Positions 6,810 to 40,787 of a stretch of 64,000 nucleotides of DNA are shown here, one piece after another. The notes below the pieces were generated by a model. The model saw only the letters and a list, made by a program, of their open reading frames with translations, was not told the DNA's origin and searched no databases. Within the stretch, counting starts at the first letter, position 1. Every line of letters starts with the position of its first letter. The DNA is taken from NCBI GenBank assembly GCA_938084715.1, contig CALKES010000003.1, positions 1 through 64,000 on the forward strand, in the 5' to 3' direction. The stretch is from Candidatus Bipolaricaulota bacterium (GTDB taxonomy: Bacteria; Bipolaricaulota; Bipolaricaulia; Bipolaricaulales; Bipolaricaulaceae). The position numbers were made by a program, and so were the translations under genes.

Positions 6810-7706
6810 GTGGCGGGGAAGGTGAAGGCCGCCCTGGCCCTGGCGGTGGTAGGAACCGCTGCCCTCGCCTCGGGATGGGAACCCATGCCTAGGGTGCGGG
6901 TCCTGGCCCACCGTGGGGCCCGGTCGGTGGCCCCGGAGAACACCCTCGCCGCGGCCCGGGCCGCCGCCGAGCTCGGGGCCGACGGGTGGGAGTTCGACGT
7001 CCGCCGGACCCGGGACGGCCAGCTCGTCCTCCTCCACGACGAGACCCTCGTCCGGACGACGGACGCCCGGGACGCCTTCCCGGAGCGGGCCCCGTGGCGG
7101 GTGGCCGACTTCACCCTCGACGAGGTTCGCCAGCTCGATGCGGGATCCTGGTTTGTGCGCGAGGACCCGTTCGGGACGATCCGCTCCGGCGAGGTGTCGG
7201 CGGAGGCGGCCCAACGGTTCCCCGGAGAACAGGTGCCGACCCTGCGCGAGGCCCTCCTCCTCTCCCGGGAGCTAGGGTTGTGGGTCAACATCGAGCTCAA
7301 GGGCGTTCCGCTGGCCCCGCTTGCCCCGGAACGCCAGGCCACGGTGGAGGAGGTGGCCACCCTGATTCGGGAGCTCGGGATGGCTGAGGTGACCCTTGTC
7401 TCCTCCTTCGACCACGAGATGATCCGCTACCTCAAGGCGGTGGCCCCGGAGGTGCCGGGCGCGCTTCTCACGACGTTCCTCCCCCCCCAGGCGGTGGAGT
7501 ACGCCCGGGGGATGCGGGCCGACGCCGTCAACCCAAGCCTCGAGGCCTACACCCCGGACTGGGGCCGCCGGCTCCACGGGGCGGGCCTAGGGGTCTACGT
7601 GTGGACCGTCAACGACCCCGGGGCGCTGGACCGGCTCGCCGCCGACCCATCCGTCACGGGGATCATCACCGACTGGCCCCAGCGGCTGCTGGCCCTCCGC
7701 CGATGA
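6810..7706 (+). CDS. glycerophosphodiester phosphodiesterase, exported
   Basis: A 298-residue GDPD-family enzyme that hydrolyses glycerophosphodiesters to G3P and an alcohol. After an N-terminal hydrophobic segment (residues 5-21, likely signal peptide or anchor) comes the diagnostic LAHRGARSVAPENT motif with the catalytic His, then WEFDVRRTRDGQLVLLHD carrying the metal-binding Glu/Asp and the second His, and later NIELKG. The GTG start at 6810 follows a GGAAGGGGGGAG tract. Lying between the ugp permeases and the phosphatase, it probably produces G3P outside the membrane for uptake by Ugp, as UgpQ does inside enteric bacteria. Export is inferred from the N terminus only. Confidence 0.93.
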   Translation: MAGKVKAALALAVVGTAALASGWEPMPRVRVLAHRGARSVAPENTLAAARAAAELGADGWEFDVRRTRDGQLVLLHDETLVRTTDARDAFPERAPWRVADFTLDEVRQLDAGSWFVREDPFGTIRSGEVSAEAAQRFPGEQVPTLREALLLSRELGLWVNIELKGVPLAPLAPERQATVEEVATLIRELGMAEVTLVSSFDHEMIRYLKAVAPEVPGALLTTFLPPQAVEYARGMRADAVNPSLEAYTPDWGRRLHGAGLGVYVWTVNDPGALDRLAADPSVTGIITDWPQRLLALRR

Positions 7707-8503
7707 TCCGCGGCTACCTCCTCGACCTCGATGGCACGGTGTACCGGGGGGAGCGGCTTGTCCCCGGCGCCGATCGGGCGATCGCCACCCTTCGCGCCCG
7801 CGGGCGGAAGGTCCTGTTCCTATCCAACAAGCCCCTCGGCTCGCGCCGCACCTACGCCGACAAGCTCACCCGTCTGGGGATCCCGGCGAGCGAGGGGGAC
7901 GTGATCCACTCCTCGTACGTCCTCGCCCGGCACCTCGCCGGGCAGGCGCCCGGGGCGCGGGTGTTTGCCCTCGGTGAGCCGCCGCTCCTGGCGGAGTTGG
8001 CCCAAGCTGGGCTCCAGTTGACCGAGGATCCGTCGGAGATCCAGTGCGTCGTCGTCGCCTTCGATCGCACCCTCACCTACGCCAAGCTCAACACCGCGTT
8101 CCAGGCGCTGCGAAGGGGGGCCCGGTTCTACGCCACAAATCCTGACCGAACGTGCCCTGTCGATGGCGGTGAGATTCCCGACGCAGCGGGGGGGATCGCG
8201 TTTCTGGAAGCCACGACCGGCCGTCGGGTGGAGGAGGTGTTCGGCAAGCCCTCGCCCCGCATGGTGGCGGCGGCCCTCGCCGTCTTGGGCCTGCCCCCCG
8301 GGGAGTGTGCGCTGGTGGGGGATCGGTTGGAGACGGACATCCGGATGGCCCGGGAGAGCGGCCTGGTCGGGATCCTCACCCTGACCGGCGTCACCTCCCC
8401 CGAGGGGGCGCGGGAGGGTTCCCCCCGCCCCGACCACGTGATCGGAAGCCTGGCCGAGCTCCCCGACCTCGACCGGGAGCTGAACGAAGGAGGAAGACGA
8501 TGA
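7703..8503 (+). CDS. HAD-superfamily phosphatase, NagD / glycerol-phosphatase type
   Basis: A 266-residue HAD type IIA hydrolase. Motif I is LLDLDGTVYRG (residues 6-16, two catalytic Asp), motif II is LFLSNK, the lysine motif is GKPSPRM and motif IV is VGDRLETDI. This subgroup includes NagD, p-nitrophenylphosphatase and archaeal/eukaryotic glycerol-3-phosphate and phosphoglycolate phosphatases. The ATG overlaps the GDPD stop (ATGA), and its own stop overlaps the next start in the same way. Given the operon, glycerol-3-phosphate phosphatase is an attractive but unproven role; it would oppose the glycerol kinase encoded two genes later. Confidence 0.88.
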   Translation: MIRGYLLDLDGTVYRGERLVPGADRAIATLRARGRKVLFLSNKPLGSRRTYADKLTRLGIPASEGDVIHSSYVLARHLAGQAPGARVFALGEPPLLAELAQAGLQLTEDPSEIQCVVVAFDRTLTYAKLNTAFQALRRGARFYATNPDRTCPVDGGEIPDAAGGIAFLEATTGRRVEEVFGKPSPRMVAAALAVLGLPPGECALVGDRLETDIRMARESGLVGILTLTGVTSPEGAREGSPRPDHVIGSLAELPDLDRELNEGGRR

Positions 8504-9597
8504 CGGAAGACGCGGTGCGGGTTCCGGTGGAGAGGCTTCGGGCGTTTGCCCAGGCGGCGTTTGAGGGGGTCGGCGTGGCCCCCCCGGACGCGGCGATCGC
8601 CGCCGAGGTCCTCCTCGCCTCGGACCTCCGGGGGATCGAGTCCCACGGGGTGGGGCGGCTCAAGATGTACTACGACTGGATCAAGAAGGGGATCATCTCC
8701 CCCCGCGTTCGGTTCGAGGTCGTCCGGGAGGGCCCGACGACGGCAGTGGTGGACGCCCACACGAGCCTCGGGCACCCGGTTGCCCACCGGGCGATGGAGC
8801 TGGCGATCGCCAAGGCCCGGGCGTACGGGGTGGGAGCGGTGGCGGTGCGGAACTCGTCCCACTACGGGATCGCCGGGTACTACGCCCGGATGGCGGCCGA
8901 GGTGGGGATGATCGGGCTTGCGTTCACGAACGCCCGGCCCTCGGTGGCCCCCACGTTCGGGGTCGAGCCCATGCTCGGGACGAACCCCATCGCCTTTGCC
9001 TGCCCCACCGACGAGCCTTTCCCGTTCCTGTTCGACGCCGCCACCTCGATCACCCAGCGGGGGAAGATCGAGGTCCTGGCGCGGGAGGGGAAGCCGACCC
9101 CGGCGGGGTGGGTCGTGGACCGTTCGGGGAGGCTCGCCACCGACACCGCGGCGATTCTCCAGGGGATTCCCCGGGAGCTCTACGCCCTCCTCCCCCTGGG
9201 GGGGGCGGGGGAGGAGATGGGCGGGCACAAGGGGTACGGCCTGGCGACGATGGTGGAGATCCTGTGCGCCGGGCTGTCCTCGGGGGCGTTCCTGTGGGCC
9301 CTGTCCGGGATGGAGCGGGACGGGACCCCGCGGCCGCACCGGCTGGCCCACTTCTTCCTCGCCGTCGGGGTCGAGGCCTTCGTCCCGTTGGACGAGTTCA
9401 AGGGGACGGTGGGCGGGATCCTCCGCGAGCTCCGCGGGGCGGCCAAGGCTCCCGGGGCCGAGCGGATCTACACCGCGGGGGAGAAGGGGCACGCCCGCGA
9501 AGAGCGGATCCGCCGGGAGGGGGTCCCGCTCCCTCCCTCCCTCCAGAGGGAGCTCCGTCAGATCGGGGCGGAGCTGGGCCTCCCCGTCCCGTTCTAG
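8500..9597 (+). CDS. malate/L-lactate/ureidoglycolate dehydrogenase family (Ldh2) oxidoreductase
   Basis: A 365-residue NAD(P)-dependent 2-hydroxyacid dehydrogenase of the Ldh2/MdhL family, unrelated to classical MDH. Family hallmarks are SDLRGIESHGVGRL (residues 43-56, with the substrate-contacting Ser-His-Gly), VRNSSHYGIAGYYA, FTNARPSVAPTFG, MLGTNPIAFACP and the GGHKGYGLATMVEIL motif. The start overlaps the preceding stop (ATGA), with GGAGGAAG upstream. Substrate is unknown; members act on malate, lactate, ureidoglycolate or 2,3-diketogulonate. In this operon a C3 hydroxyacid is plausible. Confidence 0.9.
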   Translation: MTEDAVRVPVERLRAFAQAAFEGVGVAPPDAAIAAEVLLASDLRGIESHGVGRLKMYYDWIKKGIISPRVRFEVVREGPTTAVVDAHTSLGHPVAHRAMELAIAKARAYGVGAVAVRNSSHYGIAGYYARMAAEVGMIGLAFTNARPSVAPTFGVEPMLGTNPIAFACPTDEPFPFLFDAATSITQRGKIEVLAREGKPTPAGWVVDRSGRLATDTAAILQGIPRELYALLPLGGAGEEMGGHKGYGLATMVEILCAGLSSGAFLWALSGMERDGTPRPHRLAHFFLAVGVEAFVPLDEFKGTVGGILRELRGAAKAPGAERIYTAGEKGHAREERIRREGVPLPPSLQRELRQIGAELGLPVPF

Positions 9598-36101: not shown

Positions 36102-37985
36102 ATGAACGGTGTCGCGGGAAAGATCCTGACGGTGGACCTTTCGCGGGGGACGATCGGGCAGGAGAGGCTTCCCGATCGGGCGTACCGCCTGTTTCTCGGT
36201 GGATTTGGCCTCGGGGCGTACCTCGCTTGGGAGCGGATTCCCAAAGGGACCGATCCCCTAGGGGAGGGGAACGTGGTGTCCATGGTCCCGGGGCTTCTCC
36301 TGGGAAGTGGGATTTCCACGGCGTCGAAGACCACGTTCACCTTCCGCTCCCCCCTCACGGGGACGATCAACCGCTCGGTGGCCGGGGCGTGGGCGGGGGT
36401 GGCCCTGCGCAAGGCGGGCTGGGATGCCCTCGTTGTAGCGGGGGCGAGCAAGAAGCCCGTGGTCCTCGTGATTGAGGACGGGGCGGCCCGGCTCGAGGAC
36501 GCCTCGGACCTGTGGGGCCTGGACACCCGAGCCACACGGGCTTCCCTCCGGGAGCGGTATGGGGAGGGGTACCGGACAGTGGTGATCGGCCCGGCAGGGG
36601 AGGCCCGGTCCCTGATTTCCACCCTGGAGTGCGACGGCCGCCAGGCCGGCCGGGGCGGGGGAGGGGCCGTGTTCGGGGCCAAGAACCTCAAGGCGATCCT
36701 GGTCAAGGGCACCGGCCCGATCCCCGCCGCCCACCCCGAGAGGCTGAAGGAGATCATCGCCCGCTGGGCCCCGATCATCCGCGACCACCCCGTCACCAGG
36801 GACGACATGAAGTACGGAAGCGGGGAGTTCCTCGACTGGATGAACCGCCAGCCGGGGACGTTCCCGTCGAAGAACTGGCAATGGGGCTACTTCAAGAGCG
36901 CCTACGCCCAGGCCAAGGACGGGAAGATCGAACTCGACCCCTACTACTGGGCCCCGAAGTACGTTGCGCGGAACGTGGCCTGCCCGGGGTGCACCAAGCC
37001 CTGTGGGCAGCTGTTCCAGATCAAGGAGGGGAAGTACGCCGGGACGGAGGTGGATGGGCCGGAGTACGAGACCCTGTACTCCCTCGGGGGGTGCCCGGAG
37101 GTGGCCTCGATCGAGGCCGTGGCCAAGGCCAACGAGCTCTGCGACGTCCTGGGCCTGGACACGATCTCGGCCGGGGTGACCGTGGCCTGGGCGATGGAGG
37201 CCGTGGAGCGGGGGCTTCTTTCGAAGAAGGACCTCGACGGGATCGACCTCAAGTTCGGGGACGGGGACGCGATGATCGCCGTGTTGGAGAAGATGGGGAG
37301 GCGCGAGGGGAAGACCGGGGCCCTCCTTGCCGACGGGACGAGGGCCGCCTGCGAGCGGCTGGGCAAGGGAGCTTCGTTTGCGATCCACATCAAGGGGATG
37401 GAGCTCCCCGCCTACGACATCCGCGGCTCGAAGGGGGTGGCGCTGGCGTTCGCGGTGGCCTACCGCGGCGGGGACCACCTCACGGGCGGGGTGTACGGGC
37501 TGGAGTACGGCGGGTCGTGGTGGAAGCTCACCGCCGACCGCCACTCCCTCCACGGGAAAGGGTTCGAGGTGAAGCTCCTCGAGGACCTGATGGCCCTCTA
37601 CGACACCCTGGGCGTGTGCAAGTTCACCCGCCACATCTACTTCCTCGAGGCGTTCCCGGAGATGGTGGCCGCCCAGACGGGGCTGGAGCTCACGGCGGCG
37701 GAGCTCCTGTCGATCGGGGAGCGGGCGTACAACCTCGCCCGGGCGTTCAACGTCCGGGACGGGTTCTCCCGCAAGGACGACCACCTCCCGCCGCGGGTGA
37801 TGGAGCTCCCGATCCCCGAGGGGCCCTCCGCCGGGGACCGGGTGACCCTGGAGGAGCTCCAGGCCCTTCTCGACGACTACTACGAGGCCCGGGGGTGGAG
37901 CCGAGACGGGATCCCCCTCAAGGGGCGCCTGGCGTCCCTCGACCTCCCCGACGTCGCCGACGCCGTGGGAGCAGCCGGACCCTAG
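36102..37985 (+). CDS. aor: tungsten-containing aldehyde:ferredoxin oxidoreductase
   Basis: A 627-residue AOR-family enzyme that oxidises aldehydes to acids with reduction of ferredoxin, in the cytosol. The N-terminal domain begins GKILTVDLSRG and includes GGFGLGAYLAW; AGAWAGVALRKAGWDALVV and ECDGRQAGRGGGGAVFGAKNLKAI are pterin-binding stretches. The [4Fe-4S] ligands are CPGCTKPC (C-x2-C-x3-C, about residues 294-301) plus the distal Cys in TLGVCKF (about 506), as in Pyrococcus AOR. Length is normal. Needs tungstopterin; a MoaD-like carrier is encoded at 47.7 kb. Substrate range within the family cannot be assigned. Confidence 0.95.
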   Translation: MNGVAGKILTVDLSRGTIGQERLPDRAYRLFLGGFGLGAYLAWERIPKGTDPLGEGNVVSMVPGLLLGSGISTASKTTFTFRSPLTGTINRSVAGAWAGVALRKAGWDALVVAGASKKPVVLVIEDGAARLEDASDLWGLDTRATRASLRERYGEGYRTVVIGPAGEARSLISTLECDGRQAGRGGGGAVFGAKNLKAILVKGTGPIPAAHPERLKEIIARWAPIIRDHPVTRDDMKYGSGEFLDWMNRQPGTFPSKNWQWGYFKSAYAQAKDGKIELDPYYWAPKYVARNVACPGCTKPCGQLFQIKEGKYAGTEVDGPEYETLYSLGGCPEVASIEAVAKANELCDVLGLDTISAGVTVAWAMEAVERGLLSKKDLDGIDLKFGDGDAMIAVLEKMGRREGKTGALLADGTRAACERLGKGASFAIHIKGMELPAYDIRGSKGVALAFAVAYRGGDHLTGGVYGLEYGGSWWKLTADRHSLHGKGFEVKLLEDLMALYDTLGVCKFTRHIYFLEAFPEMVAAQTGLELTAAELLSIGERAYNLARAFNVRDGFSRKDDHLPPRVMELPIPEGPSAGDRVTLEELQALLDDYYEARGWSRDGIPLKGRLASLDLPDVADAVGAAGP

Positions 37986-38764: not shown

Positions 38765-39670
38765 CTACAGGGGCAGGATGAACACAAGGACGTAGAGCCC
38801 CAGCGCCAACGGGGGGAGAACCCCCAACGCCTGGTGGTACAGGCGCACGGCCTGGGCCCTCCGGTCCTCCCGCTCCGCCCAGCGCAGGATCGCCACCCCG
38901 CTCAGGAGGATCAGCACGAGCACGATGTAGGTCGCGATCATCACCCGGTCGGCCAGGGTCAGGTACCCCACGGGCGGAATCGAGTTCGTCAGGTTCACGT
39001 GGAACATCACCGCCCCAAGAAGGGTCGAGATGTTGAGCGACAGCCGGGTCGTCACCTTGTCCGGGGCAAGGAGGAGCGAAAGAAACCCCACCAGGACCAT
39101 GCACGCCACCGGGAGAAACGACTTGATCACCGCGTTGAGGAACACCCGCTGGATCCGGAGGCCGAACACGTACCGGGAGAAGCTCTCCCCGTAGACGCCG
39201 TACTCGTGGGCCCGAACCGCCGCCTCCCACCCCACGAGCTTCCACCCCACCACGATCACGCTCGGGTCGACCCCGCTCAGGTCCTTGTCCAGCACGTACA
39301 CGAGGTCCTCCACCGTCCGGCGCTTGTCCTCGATCTCGACCGTGAGGAGGTGCTCGTCGAACGGGTACCGCCGGAGGTCGAGGTTCTGGGACAGGTTCGC
39401 CTGGATCCGGAAGAACTTCTCCGTCGGGGTGTCGATGAGCCGGTCCACGGTCGCCGCCCGGCCGTTCATGAACTCAAATTCGTCCATCGGCACCGGGCGG
39501 TCGGAGCGGAGGGAGAGGTAGAAGTCCACGGTGTAGGAACCGCTGGCGAGGTCGAACCTCCCGAGGTTGAGGATGTAGACCCCGACCCGCACCTCGGCCG
39601 GCCTGGCCAGGCCCGAGACGGGAAGGAGAAGGGCCAAGAGAGGGAGAACCCAACGCCCGCAGCTCCCCAT
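38765..39670 (-). CDS. prokaryotic pentameric ligand-gated ion channel (Cys-loop receptor superfamily)
   Basis: A 301-residue protein homologous to GLIC/ELIC-type channels. Residues 1-21 are a signal peptide. The extracellular beta-sandwich (about 22-195) has VGVYILNLGRFDLASGSYTVDFYLSLR at strand 1-2 and NLDLRRYPFDEHLLTVEIED, the YPFD turn of the Cys-loop (without the Cys pair, as in bacteria). Four helices follow. M2 (KVTTRLSLNISTLLGAVMFH) aligns on the STL motif with GLIC, and the M2-M3 loop has the conserved Pro (TNSIPPVGYLTLADRVM). At the -2' position, where GLIC has Glu, this protein has Thr, and Arg follows at 0'. Start ATG 39670 has a weak ribosome site. It follows fbp by 4 bases. Confidence 0.9.
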   Translation of the reverse strand: MGSCGRWVLPLLALLLPVSGLARPAEVRVGVYILNLGRFDLASGSYTVDFYLSLRSDRPVPMDEFEFMNGRAATVDRLIDTPTEKFFRIQANLSQNLDLRRYPFDEHLLTVEIEDKRRTVEDLVYVLDKDLSGVDPSVIVVGWKLVGWEAAVRAHEYGVYGESFSRYVFGLRIQRVFLNAVIKSFLPVACMVLVGFLSLLLAPDKVTTRLSLNISTLLGAVMFHVNLTNSIPPVGYLTLADRVMIATYIVLVLILLSGVAILRWAEREDRRAQAVRLYHQALGVLPPLALGLYVLVFILPL

Positions 39671-39674
39671 GGGC

Positions 39675-40787
39675 TTACAGGGTGCGGAACCGGTCCTCGA
39701 GCTCGGCAAGCGACTTCCGAAACGCGCTGTACTCGAGCTCGGTCATCGGGAGCATCGCCGCCCCCACGAACCCCTGCTCCCGGAGGGCGAGCCCCTTCTC
39801 CTGGGCCTTCAGCCGCACGGCGTCCCACACCGGGTTCCCAAACACGTCCACCCCCGCCGAGAGCTTCCCCTCCCGGTTCACCGAGTAGGCGACGCAGGCC
39901 ACCAGCGGAAGGCAGTACGGCCCGGTGACCGGGGTGTTGATCGGGACGGGCATGAGGGGCATGGTGTGGCTCCCCCGGGCCCCGCCGGCCACGTACGGGG
40001 CCACCCCGTACGGGCTCACCACCTCCTCGGGGGCCGGGAAGATCCCCTGGGTCCGGACGATCGCCACCGGGTCGTCCTTGCCCTTGTACTCCCCAGCGAT
40101 CGTGTGGAGCCGGTCGGTGGACACCGCCACCACCTGCTGGGACGGGTGGAGCCGGGAGTGGATCGCCTGGATTCCAAACCGGTTCTCGTCCCGGAGGAGG
40201 ATCGCCAGCTCCACGTGCTCCTCGGGGGAGACGAGGTCGAGGACCCGGTCCCCGTGGGGGTGCTCCATGTCGATCACCCGGAACGTGAACCCCTTCTTCA
40301 TCACCGGGAGCATGAGCCCGGCGTTGTAGAGCGGGCTTGTGAACACGGCCCACAGGGGGAAGTTGAACGCCCCCGGGCCGCACTTGTCGGCGGTGAAGAC
40401 GAGGAACGCCTCGGCCCTCCGCTCGGGGGCCGCCTCGTCGAACGTGATCTCCGCCGCGCCTGGCCCGGCCCCGCGGACGTTCCCGCTCGGGGCGTCCTTG
40501 AGGAGGTCCTGGCCAGCGGCGTAGAGCCCTTCCGCCCGGGCCACCTCGGTCGCCCCCCGGAACGCCTCCCAAGCCAGGTTGTGGACGTCCGGACAGGCGC
40601 TCCCATTCCGGTGGACCATGAGGAGGCACAGGTCGTCCCCGGTGAAGGTGACGGCGAAGTCGGTGAGGAGCCCCTTCCCGACGGCCTCCCCGAGGACCGC
40701 CCGCGCCGCCCCAACCATCCCCGCCGAGGGGCAGGTGTGCCCCCCGATGCTCCCCACGTCGGCCTTGATCGCGCTGATCGTGATCAT
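39675..40787 (-). CDS. fbp: fructose-1,6-bisphosphate aldolase/phosphatase (archaeal type)
   Basis: A 370-residue bifunctional FBPA/P (class V FBPase) that condenses DHAP and GAP and dephosphorylates the product, making gluconeogenesis one-way. Family motifs: ISAIKADVGSIGGHTCPS at the N terminus, FTGDDLCLLMVHR, FTADKCGPGAFNFPLW, DMEHPHGDRVLDL, and GVAPYVAGGARGSHTMPLMPV. This enzyme is nearly universal in archaea and found in deep-branching thermophilic bacteria; it is a heat-stable marker of autotrophic or gluconeogenic metabolism. It lies 12 bases after thrS on the same strand. Confidence 0.97.
   Translation of the reverse strand: MITISAIKADVGSIGGHTCPSAGMVGAARAVLGEAVGKGLLTDFAVTFTGDDLCLLMVHRNGSACPDVHNLAWEAFRGATEVARAEGLYAAGQDLLKDAPSGNVRGAGPGAAEITFDEAAPERRAEAFLVFTADKCGPGAFNFPLWAVFTSPLYNAGLMLPVMKKGFTFRVIDMEHPHGDRVLDLVSPEEHVELAILLRDENRFGIQAIHSRLHPSQQVVAVSTDRLHTIAGEYKGKDDPVAIVRTQGIFPAPEEVVSPYGVAPYVAGGARGSHTMPLMPVPINTPVTGPYCLPLVACVAYSVNREGKLSAGVDVFGNPVWDAVRLKAQEKGLALREQGFVGAAMLPMTELEYSAFRKSLAELEDRFRTL

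What the first reader, a model, noticed from the sequence alone, without database searches (positions are those of the whole stretch)
38765..39670. Pentameric ligand-gated ion channel homologue next to central-carbon and tRNA synthetase genes
Seen: signal peptide, beta-sandwich with a YPFD turn, four helices, and an M2 segment that aligns without gaps to GLIC from the STL motif to the M2-M3 proline. Where GLIC has Glu at -2', this channel has Thr, with Arg at 0', so cation selectivity is doubtful. Known: bacterial relatives such as GLIC, ELIC and DeCLIC are gated by protons, amines or calcium. Inferred: a heat-stable member from a deep lineage, with unknown ligand, would be a useful structural and evolutionary addition. 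Its 4-base spacing from fbp hints at a metabolite- or pH-linked role.
Basis: partly seen in the sequence, partly recalled or inferred. Interest (0 to 1): 0.78.

Follow-up and report, generated by a model that had tools for sequence, protein, structure and literature searches.

The report
Minimal archaeal-type pentameric ion channel
A probably heat-loving bacterium carries a relative of animal nerve-receptor ion channels with an unusually stripped-down sensor domain, belonging to an apparently undescribed subfamily shared with tiny symbiotic archaea and a few other bacteria; the ligand it answers to is unknown.

Summary

It is not GLIC-like in its sensor. The extracellular domain lacks about 20 residues (beta3 and the loop-A hWxP segment), a shortness shared with many prokaryotic pLGICs, and also the strand-2 Trp called universally conserved in 2004. 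Trp loss marks one supported clade (0/40 members keep it; 50/56 other sampled pLGICs do): Bipolaricaulota, DPANN archaea, and scattered Myxococcota, Planctomycetota and Spirochaetota. All 18 archaeal members carry Cys-x(2-3)-Cys there; none of 22 bacterial ones do. GLIC's proton sensor E35 and E222, H235, E243, H277 are not conserved.

The fbp-linked role is not supported: only 2 of 12 genomes of the genus carry the channel, relatives keep thrS-fbp without it, and elsewhere its neighbours differ.

Most likely a stand-alone periplasm-sensing homopentamer with an anion-leaning or weakly selective pore; ligand unknown. New variant of a known kind.

The parts
38765..39670 (-). pLGIC subunit gene, 301 aa, stop codon included
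39605..39670 (-). predicted signal peptide (about residues 1-22; cleavage site inferred by eye)
   Evidence: sequence MGSCGRWVLPLLALLLPVSGLA; low pLDDT for residues 1-20; hydrophobic N-termini in orthologues
39146..39604 (-). short extracellular beta domain (residues 23-175) without the beta3/loop-A hWxP segment
39464..39475 (-). EFMN (residues 66-69) of the conserved EFMNGRA motif that follows the shortened turn
39356..39367 (-). YPFD 'Pro-loop' motif (residues 102-105)
39074..39142 (-). M1 helix (177-199) with conserved Pro187
38987..39064 (-). M2 pore helix (203-228): T-2', T-1', R0', S6', L9', H15'
38873..38956 (-). M3 helix (239-266)
38777..38869 (-). M4 helix (268-298)
39675..40787 (-). 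fbp (fructose-1,6-bisphosphate aldolase/phosphatase, PF01950) directly upstream; a neighbour, probably not functionally linked
36102..37985 (+). aldehyde:ferredoxin oxidoreductase gene, convergent; marks the syntenic block that lacks the channel in G004 and G012

Best explanation
This is a stand-alone, inner-membrane homopentameric ligand-gated channel with a signal peptide, a minimal periplasm-facing sensor domain and a classical four-helix pore. Shown: homology, predicted subunit fold, conservation of the coupling residues (YPFD Asp105, pre-M1 Arg175, M1 Pro187, M2-M3 Pro232) and purifying selection. Inferred: five subunits assemble; a small polar or charged solute or ion binds at subunit interfaces near the strongly conserved charged residues (E66, R71, R88, D135, H155, Y157, E162); the signal passes through the Pro-loop and M2-M3 loop to open the L9' gate; with Arg at 0' and no acid at -1' or -2', the open pore passes anions or is only weakly selective. 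It belongs to a Trp-less, short-ECD clade shared with DPANN archaea, and the Bipolaricaulota form is most easily explained by transfer between domains, direction unresolved.
For: Family, PDB and profile hits; AF2 model pLDDT 90.4 and Foldseek GLIC TMq 0.83 at 2.7-2.9 A; all seven superfamily-wide conserved positions of PMC4795631 present; dN/dS 0.10-0.17 between close orthologues; 20-residue gap against GLIC at beta3/loop A; strand-2 Trp in 0/40 clade members and 50/56 others; clade support 100/97, and Bipolaricaulota with Micrarchaeota/Diapherotrites/Aenigmatarchaeota 95/93; accessory occurrence, with no channel at the same block in sister genomes; acidic -2' in 39/56 other sampled pLGICs but about 10/40 of this clade, and not here.
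Against: No pentamer model, contact analysis on coordinates, ligand test or electrophysiology was possible. PF02931 is below its cut-off. Selectivity prediction from pore letters is weak, and some clade members do carry D or E at -2' or -1'. The ligand-site residues are inferred from conservation alone. Single archaeal contigs from metagenome assemblies can be mis-binned, although the pattern rests on 18 archaeal loci.
Confidence: 0.75

Rival explanations
1. A GLIC-like proton-gated cation channel that happens to lie in Bipolaricaulota.
For: GLIC is the closest solved natural channel by sequence and fold.
Against: E26, D32, E35, E222, H235, E243 and H277, all reported to alter GLIC activation (PMC5760087), map to N, L, G, T, A, T and R; beta3 and loop A are absent; D122 alone is kept, as in almost all pLGICs.
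Confidence: 0.1
2. A metabolite sensor tied to gluconeogenesis, co-transcribed with fbp.
For: 4-base spacing to fbp on the same strand, with fbp also directly upstream in one sister genome, G013.
Against: Only 2 of 12 genus members have the channel; G004 and G012 have fbp followed by the AOR gene with about 25-30 bases between and no channel, and G005, G006, G007 and G009 have fbp followed by other genes; in sister genera the channel lies among other genes.
Confidence: 0.04
3. A modulatory or non-conducting subunit, or a solute receptor that signals through a partner protein rather than by ion flow.
For: PF02931 below cut-off and truncated sensor domain; related short-ECD proteins are fused to solute-binding domains.
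Against: The pore helix and gating residues are among the best-conserved parts; no partner gene is conserved nearby; only one pLGIC in the genome by PF02932.
Confidence: 0.09
4. A decaying, recently acquired gene without function.
For: Sporadic presence within the phylum.
Against: dN/dS about 0.1-0.17 between close orthologues, intact frames in six Bipolaricaulota genomes, M2 nearly invariant.
Confidence: 0.02

Closest known systems
GLIC (Gloeobacter violaceus proton-gated channel; e.g. PDB 3EAM)
   Same: Fold, Pro-loop YPFD, pre-M1 Arg, M1 and M2-M3 prolines, gapless M2 alignment
   Different: About 20 residues shorter (no beta3/loop-A hWxP), no strand-2 Trp, none of GLIC's proton-sensitive residues apart from the generic D122, Thr instead of Glu at -2', His instead of Asn at 15'
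Short-ECD prokaryotic pLGICs with strand-2 Trp (Planctomycetota, Myxococcota, Spirochaetota, Azospirillum here; the non-hWxP forms of Tasneem et al., PMC549065, appear to be this kind)
   Same: Same short beta2-to-beta4 spacing; no hWxP; some also have His at 15'
   Different: They keep the strand-2 Trp (FRWK) and mostly have an acid at -2'; several are fused to solute-binding domains
Animal Cys-loop receptors of the anionic type (GABAA, glycine)
   Same: Basic 0' residue without acid at -1'; fold; chimeras with their TM domain are the top PDB hits
   Different: No Cys-loop cysteines, no loop A, no long M3-M4 loop, T-T-R instead of P-A-R
ELIC, sTeLIC and DeCLIC (solved prokaryotic pLGICs)
   Same: Superfamily fold
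   Different: None ranked above GLIC in the searches here; DeCLIC additionally carries an N-terminal domain (PMC9897478 abstract). Not compared residue by residue here

Membership tests
pLGIC / Pro-loop receptor superfamily | Pro-loop [F/Y]PxD | tested here: met
   Y102-P103-F104-D105; P and D 40/40 in the clade
pLGIC / Pro-loop receptor superfamily | beta9 Trp, pre-M1 Arg, M1 Pro, M2-M3 Pro | tested here: met
   W143, R175, P187, P232
pLGIC / Pro-loop receptor superfamily | Four-TM channel domain (PF02932) | tested here: met
   28.8 bits vs cut-off 28.1; four helices in the model
pLGIC / Pro-loop receptor superfamily | Ligand-binding domain (PF02931) | tested here: inconclusive
   12.6 bits, below cut-off 26; 16/17 family members match at E<=1, best 6e-9; fold matches GLIC
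pLGIC / Pro-loop receptor superfamily | Pentameric assembly and ligand-gated current | not testable with these tools
   Monomer model only
GLIC-type proton-gated channel | Proton sensor E35 and the other proton-sensitive residues | tested here: not met
   E35 to G44; E26, D32, E222, H235, E243, H277 all replaced
GLIC-type / animal-type ligand-binding domain | hWxP loop-A motif | tested here: not met
   20-residue gap in the profile alignment
ART-LGIC as described in 2004 (PMC549065) | 'Universally conserved' Trp at the end of strand 2 | tested here: not met
   S56 here; 0/40 in the clade, 50/56 in other sampled pLGICs
Cys-loop receptor | Cysteine pair flanking the Pro-loop | tested here: not met
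   No cysteine in residues 23-175
Cation-selective pLGIC | Glu at -1' or -2' | tested here: not met
   T207, T208
Anion-selective animal pLGIC | Pro-Ala-Arg at -2'/-1'/0' | tested here: not met
   T-T-R; motif itself from general knowledge

The most novel reading that the evidence does not exclude
A previously undescribed pLGIC subfamily, centred on DPANN archaea and transferred between archaea and bacteria, in which loss of the strand-2 Trp and of beta3/loop A has replaced the classical aromatic ligand box by a charged site (with a Cys-x(2-3)-Cys element in archaea, possibly a metal or redox switch), so that it senses an ion or small acid rather than a neurotransmitter-like amine.
Probability: 0.3. 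Interest if true: 0.75.

Novelty: new variant of a known kind. Interest (0 to 1): 0.52.

Why it matters
It would give structural biologists a very small natural pLGIC, possibly heat-stable, with a minimal sensor domain. That bears on which parts of the extracellular domain are needed to couple ligand binding to gating and, since hWxP has been argued to be a derived trait, on what early pLGICs looked like. It places such channels in DPANN symbiotic archaea, a group not listed in the text of the 2016 inventory that I read and not found paired with ligand-gated channels in the library searched, and it suggests exchange of a signalling channel between archaea and bacteria.

Tried and rejected
Viral contigs and phage records: no relative. 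Plasmid records: nine distant relatives, mostly Azospirillum. fbp operon idea: rejected on synteny. Second pLGIC in the genome: none by PF02932. Reverse gyrase as a sign of hyperthermophily: no match over cut-off; the best is partial, 274 bits over model positions 706-1167. A PF02931 search of the own genome found nothing even though the channel is there, so that model cannot be used to claim absence. The G076 hit (L009) is 31% identical over 101 residues, with in-frame stops, and was set aside as chance. A first translation of the Azospirillum relative used the wrong frame and was redone. Literature: no paper in the library pairs DPANN with 'ligand-gated ion channel'; the one hit for Bipolaricaulota with 'ion channel' is an origin-of-life paper.

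Full report
OBSERVATION. The ORF 39670..38768 (minus strand, stop 38765-38767) encodes a 301-residue protein. It passes the curated cut-off of PF02932 (28.8 vs 28.1 bits) but not that of the ligand-binding model PF02931 (12.6 vs 26 bits). phmmer against PDB sequences gives a GLIC-GABAAR chimera at 6.6e-18 and wild-type GLIC at 1.5e-14. A profile of 17 relatives reaches 2e-30 and 2e-25. AlphaFold2 with that alignment gives pLDDT 90.4, pTM 0.78, eight main strands and four long helices. Foldseek finds GLIC structures at query TM about 0.80-0.83 and about 19-22% identity, GLIC chimeras included.

CONSERVED SIGNATURES. Jaiteh et al. (PMC4795631) list the few residues conserved across all pLGICs. 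All are present: Y102-P103-x-D105, W143, R175, P187, P232. Between close Bipolaricaulota orthologues dN/dS is 0.10-0.17, so the protein is kept by selection (simple NG86 count).

WHAT IS DIFFERENT. The profile alignment to GLIC has one large gap: about 20 GLIC residues ending in the Trp of IWIPE, i.e. beta3 and the start of the loop-A hWxP motif, have no counterpart, and the AF2 model shows only eight main strands. The same shortness is widespread: many Planctomycetota, Myxococcota and Spirochaetota pLGICs found here have it. Tasneem et al. (PMC549065) already noted that hWxP is restricted to some bacterial forms and animals, and argued it is derived. So the short domain alone is not new. What marks this group is loss of the strand-2 Trp that the same paper calls universally conserved. 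In the sample here it is absent from 40/40 members of the clade and present in 50/56 other sequences.

PHYLOGENY. A quick tree of 96 sequences and a careful tree of 45 recover the Trp-less group as one supported set (SH-aLRT 99; bootstrap/SH-aLRT 100/97). Bipolaricaulota are monophyletic (100/100) and group with Micrarchaeota, Diapherotrites and Aenigmatarchaeota (95/93). Leptospirales and one Planctomycetota sequence (L020) fall among Nanoarchaeota-phylum sequences. The strand-2 columns were not left out of the trees, and the direction of transfer is not resolved. All 18 archaeal members have Cys-x(2-3)-Cys where the Trp would be; none of the 22 bacterial members do. Organism names come from record titles; phylum labels of the other loci come from the phylum searched.

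PORE. M2 reads T-2' T-1' R0' ... S6' ... L9' ... H15' ... N20'. Arg at 0' is invariant in the clade and His at 15' is in 38/40, but a basic 0' is common superfamily-wide (79%). The absence of acid at -2'/-1' contrasts with 39/56 of the other sampled sequences having D or E at -2'. This leans against cation selectivity. It does not prove anion selectivity.

GATING. GLIC activation is altered by E26, D32, E35, D122, E222, H235, E243 and H277, with E35 a key proton sensor (PMC5760087). Only D122 is kept here, and it is kept in nearly all pLGICs. GLIC-type proton gating is therefore unlikely, though other proton-sensing schemes are not excluded. Conserved charged or polar residues of the extracellular domain (E66, N69, R71, R88, D135, H155, Y157, E162) suggest a polar or ionic ligand, but I had no coordinates to test whether they cluster, so this is inference.

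CONTEXT. The gene follows fbp by 4 bases, after thrS. Of 12 genomes in the genus only two carry the channel. In G004 and G012, fbp is followed by the convergent aldehyde:ferredoxin oxidoreductase gene about 25-30 bases away with no channel; in G005, G006, G007 and G009 other genes follow. In sister genera the neighbours are different. So the fbp adjacency is incidental and the gene is accessory: 9 of 100 genomes of the phylum set matched, one of them (L009) a chance hit. Thermophily: a six-protein IVYWREL estimate near 68 C, no reverse gyrase over cut-off; only weak support for heat stability.

VERDICT. A genuine pLGIC of a short-ECD, Trp-less subfamily; a new variant of a known kind. Membership in the superfamily is firm at the sequence and predicted-fold level. 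Pentamer formation, ligand and selectivity are untested.

Noticed in passing
L135:1-2487 (-), L139; by eye also L100: Spirochaetota (and probably Myxococcota) short-ECD pLGICs carry a C-terminal solute-binding domain (SBP_bac_5, PF00496, E about 1e-39) after M4; Tasneem et al. describe N-terminal fusions, so a C-terminal one may be unreported.
   Followed up: partly
L062, L040, L059: Planctomycetota pLGICs with an N-terminal solute-binding-like domain; the domain is confirmed for L062 (NMT1_3, PF16868, E 1e-24), by eye for the others.
   Followed up: partly
L142, L148: Spirochaetota pLGICs with what looks like an N-terminal type-I periplasmic binding domain (by eye only).
   Followed up: no
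L157:4001-4795 (+), Azospirillum brasilense Sp7 plasmid: A cultured bacterium carries an unannotated short-ECD, Trp-containing relative (32% identity), a practical laboratory handle.
   Followed up: partly
L014-L018, L035-L036, L115-L125: All 18 DPANN members have Cys-x(2-3)-Cys in the beta2-beta4 turn; none of the 22 bacterial members do.
   Followed up: partly
L037 / L057 (Planctomycetota G110): Two adjacent, divergent copies of the Trp-less channel, a possible heteromeric pair.
   Followed up: no
L073, L075-L076 (G009, G007): fbp copies with an in-frame TAG or split matches in these genomes, possibly assembly errors.
   Followed up: no
L014, about 6873-8524 (-): Two adjacent genes that look like SPFH/stomatin-type membrane proteins next to the Diapherotrites channel (by eye).
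   Followed up: no
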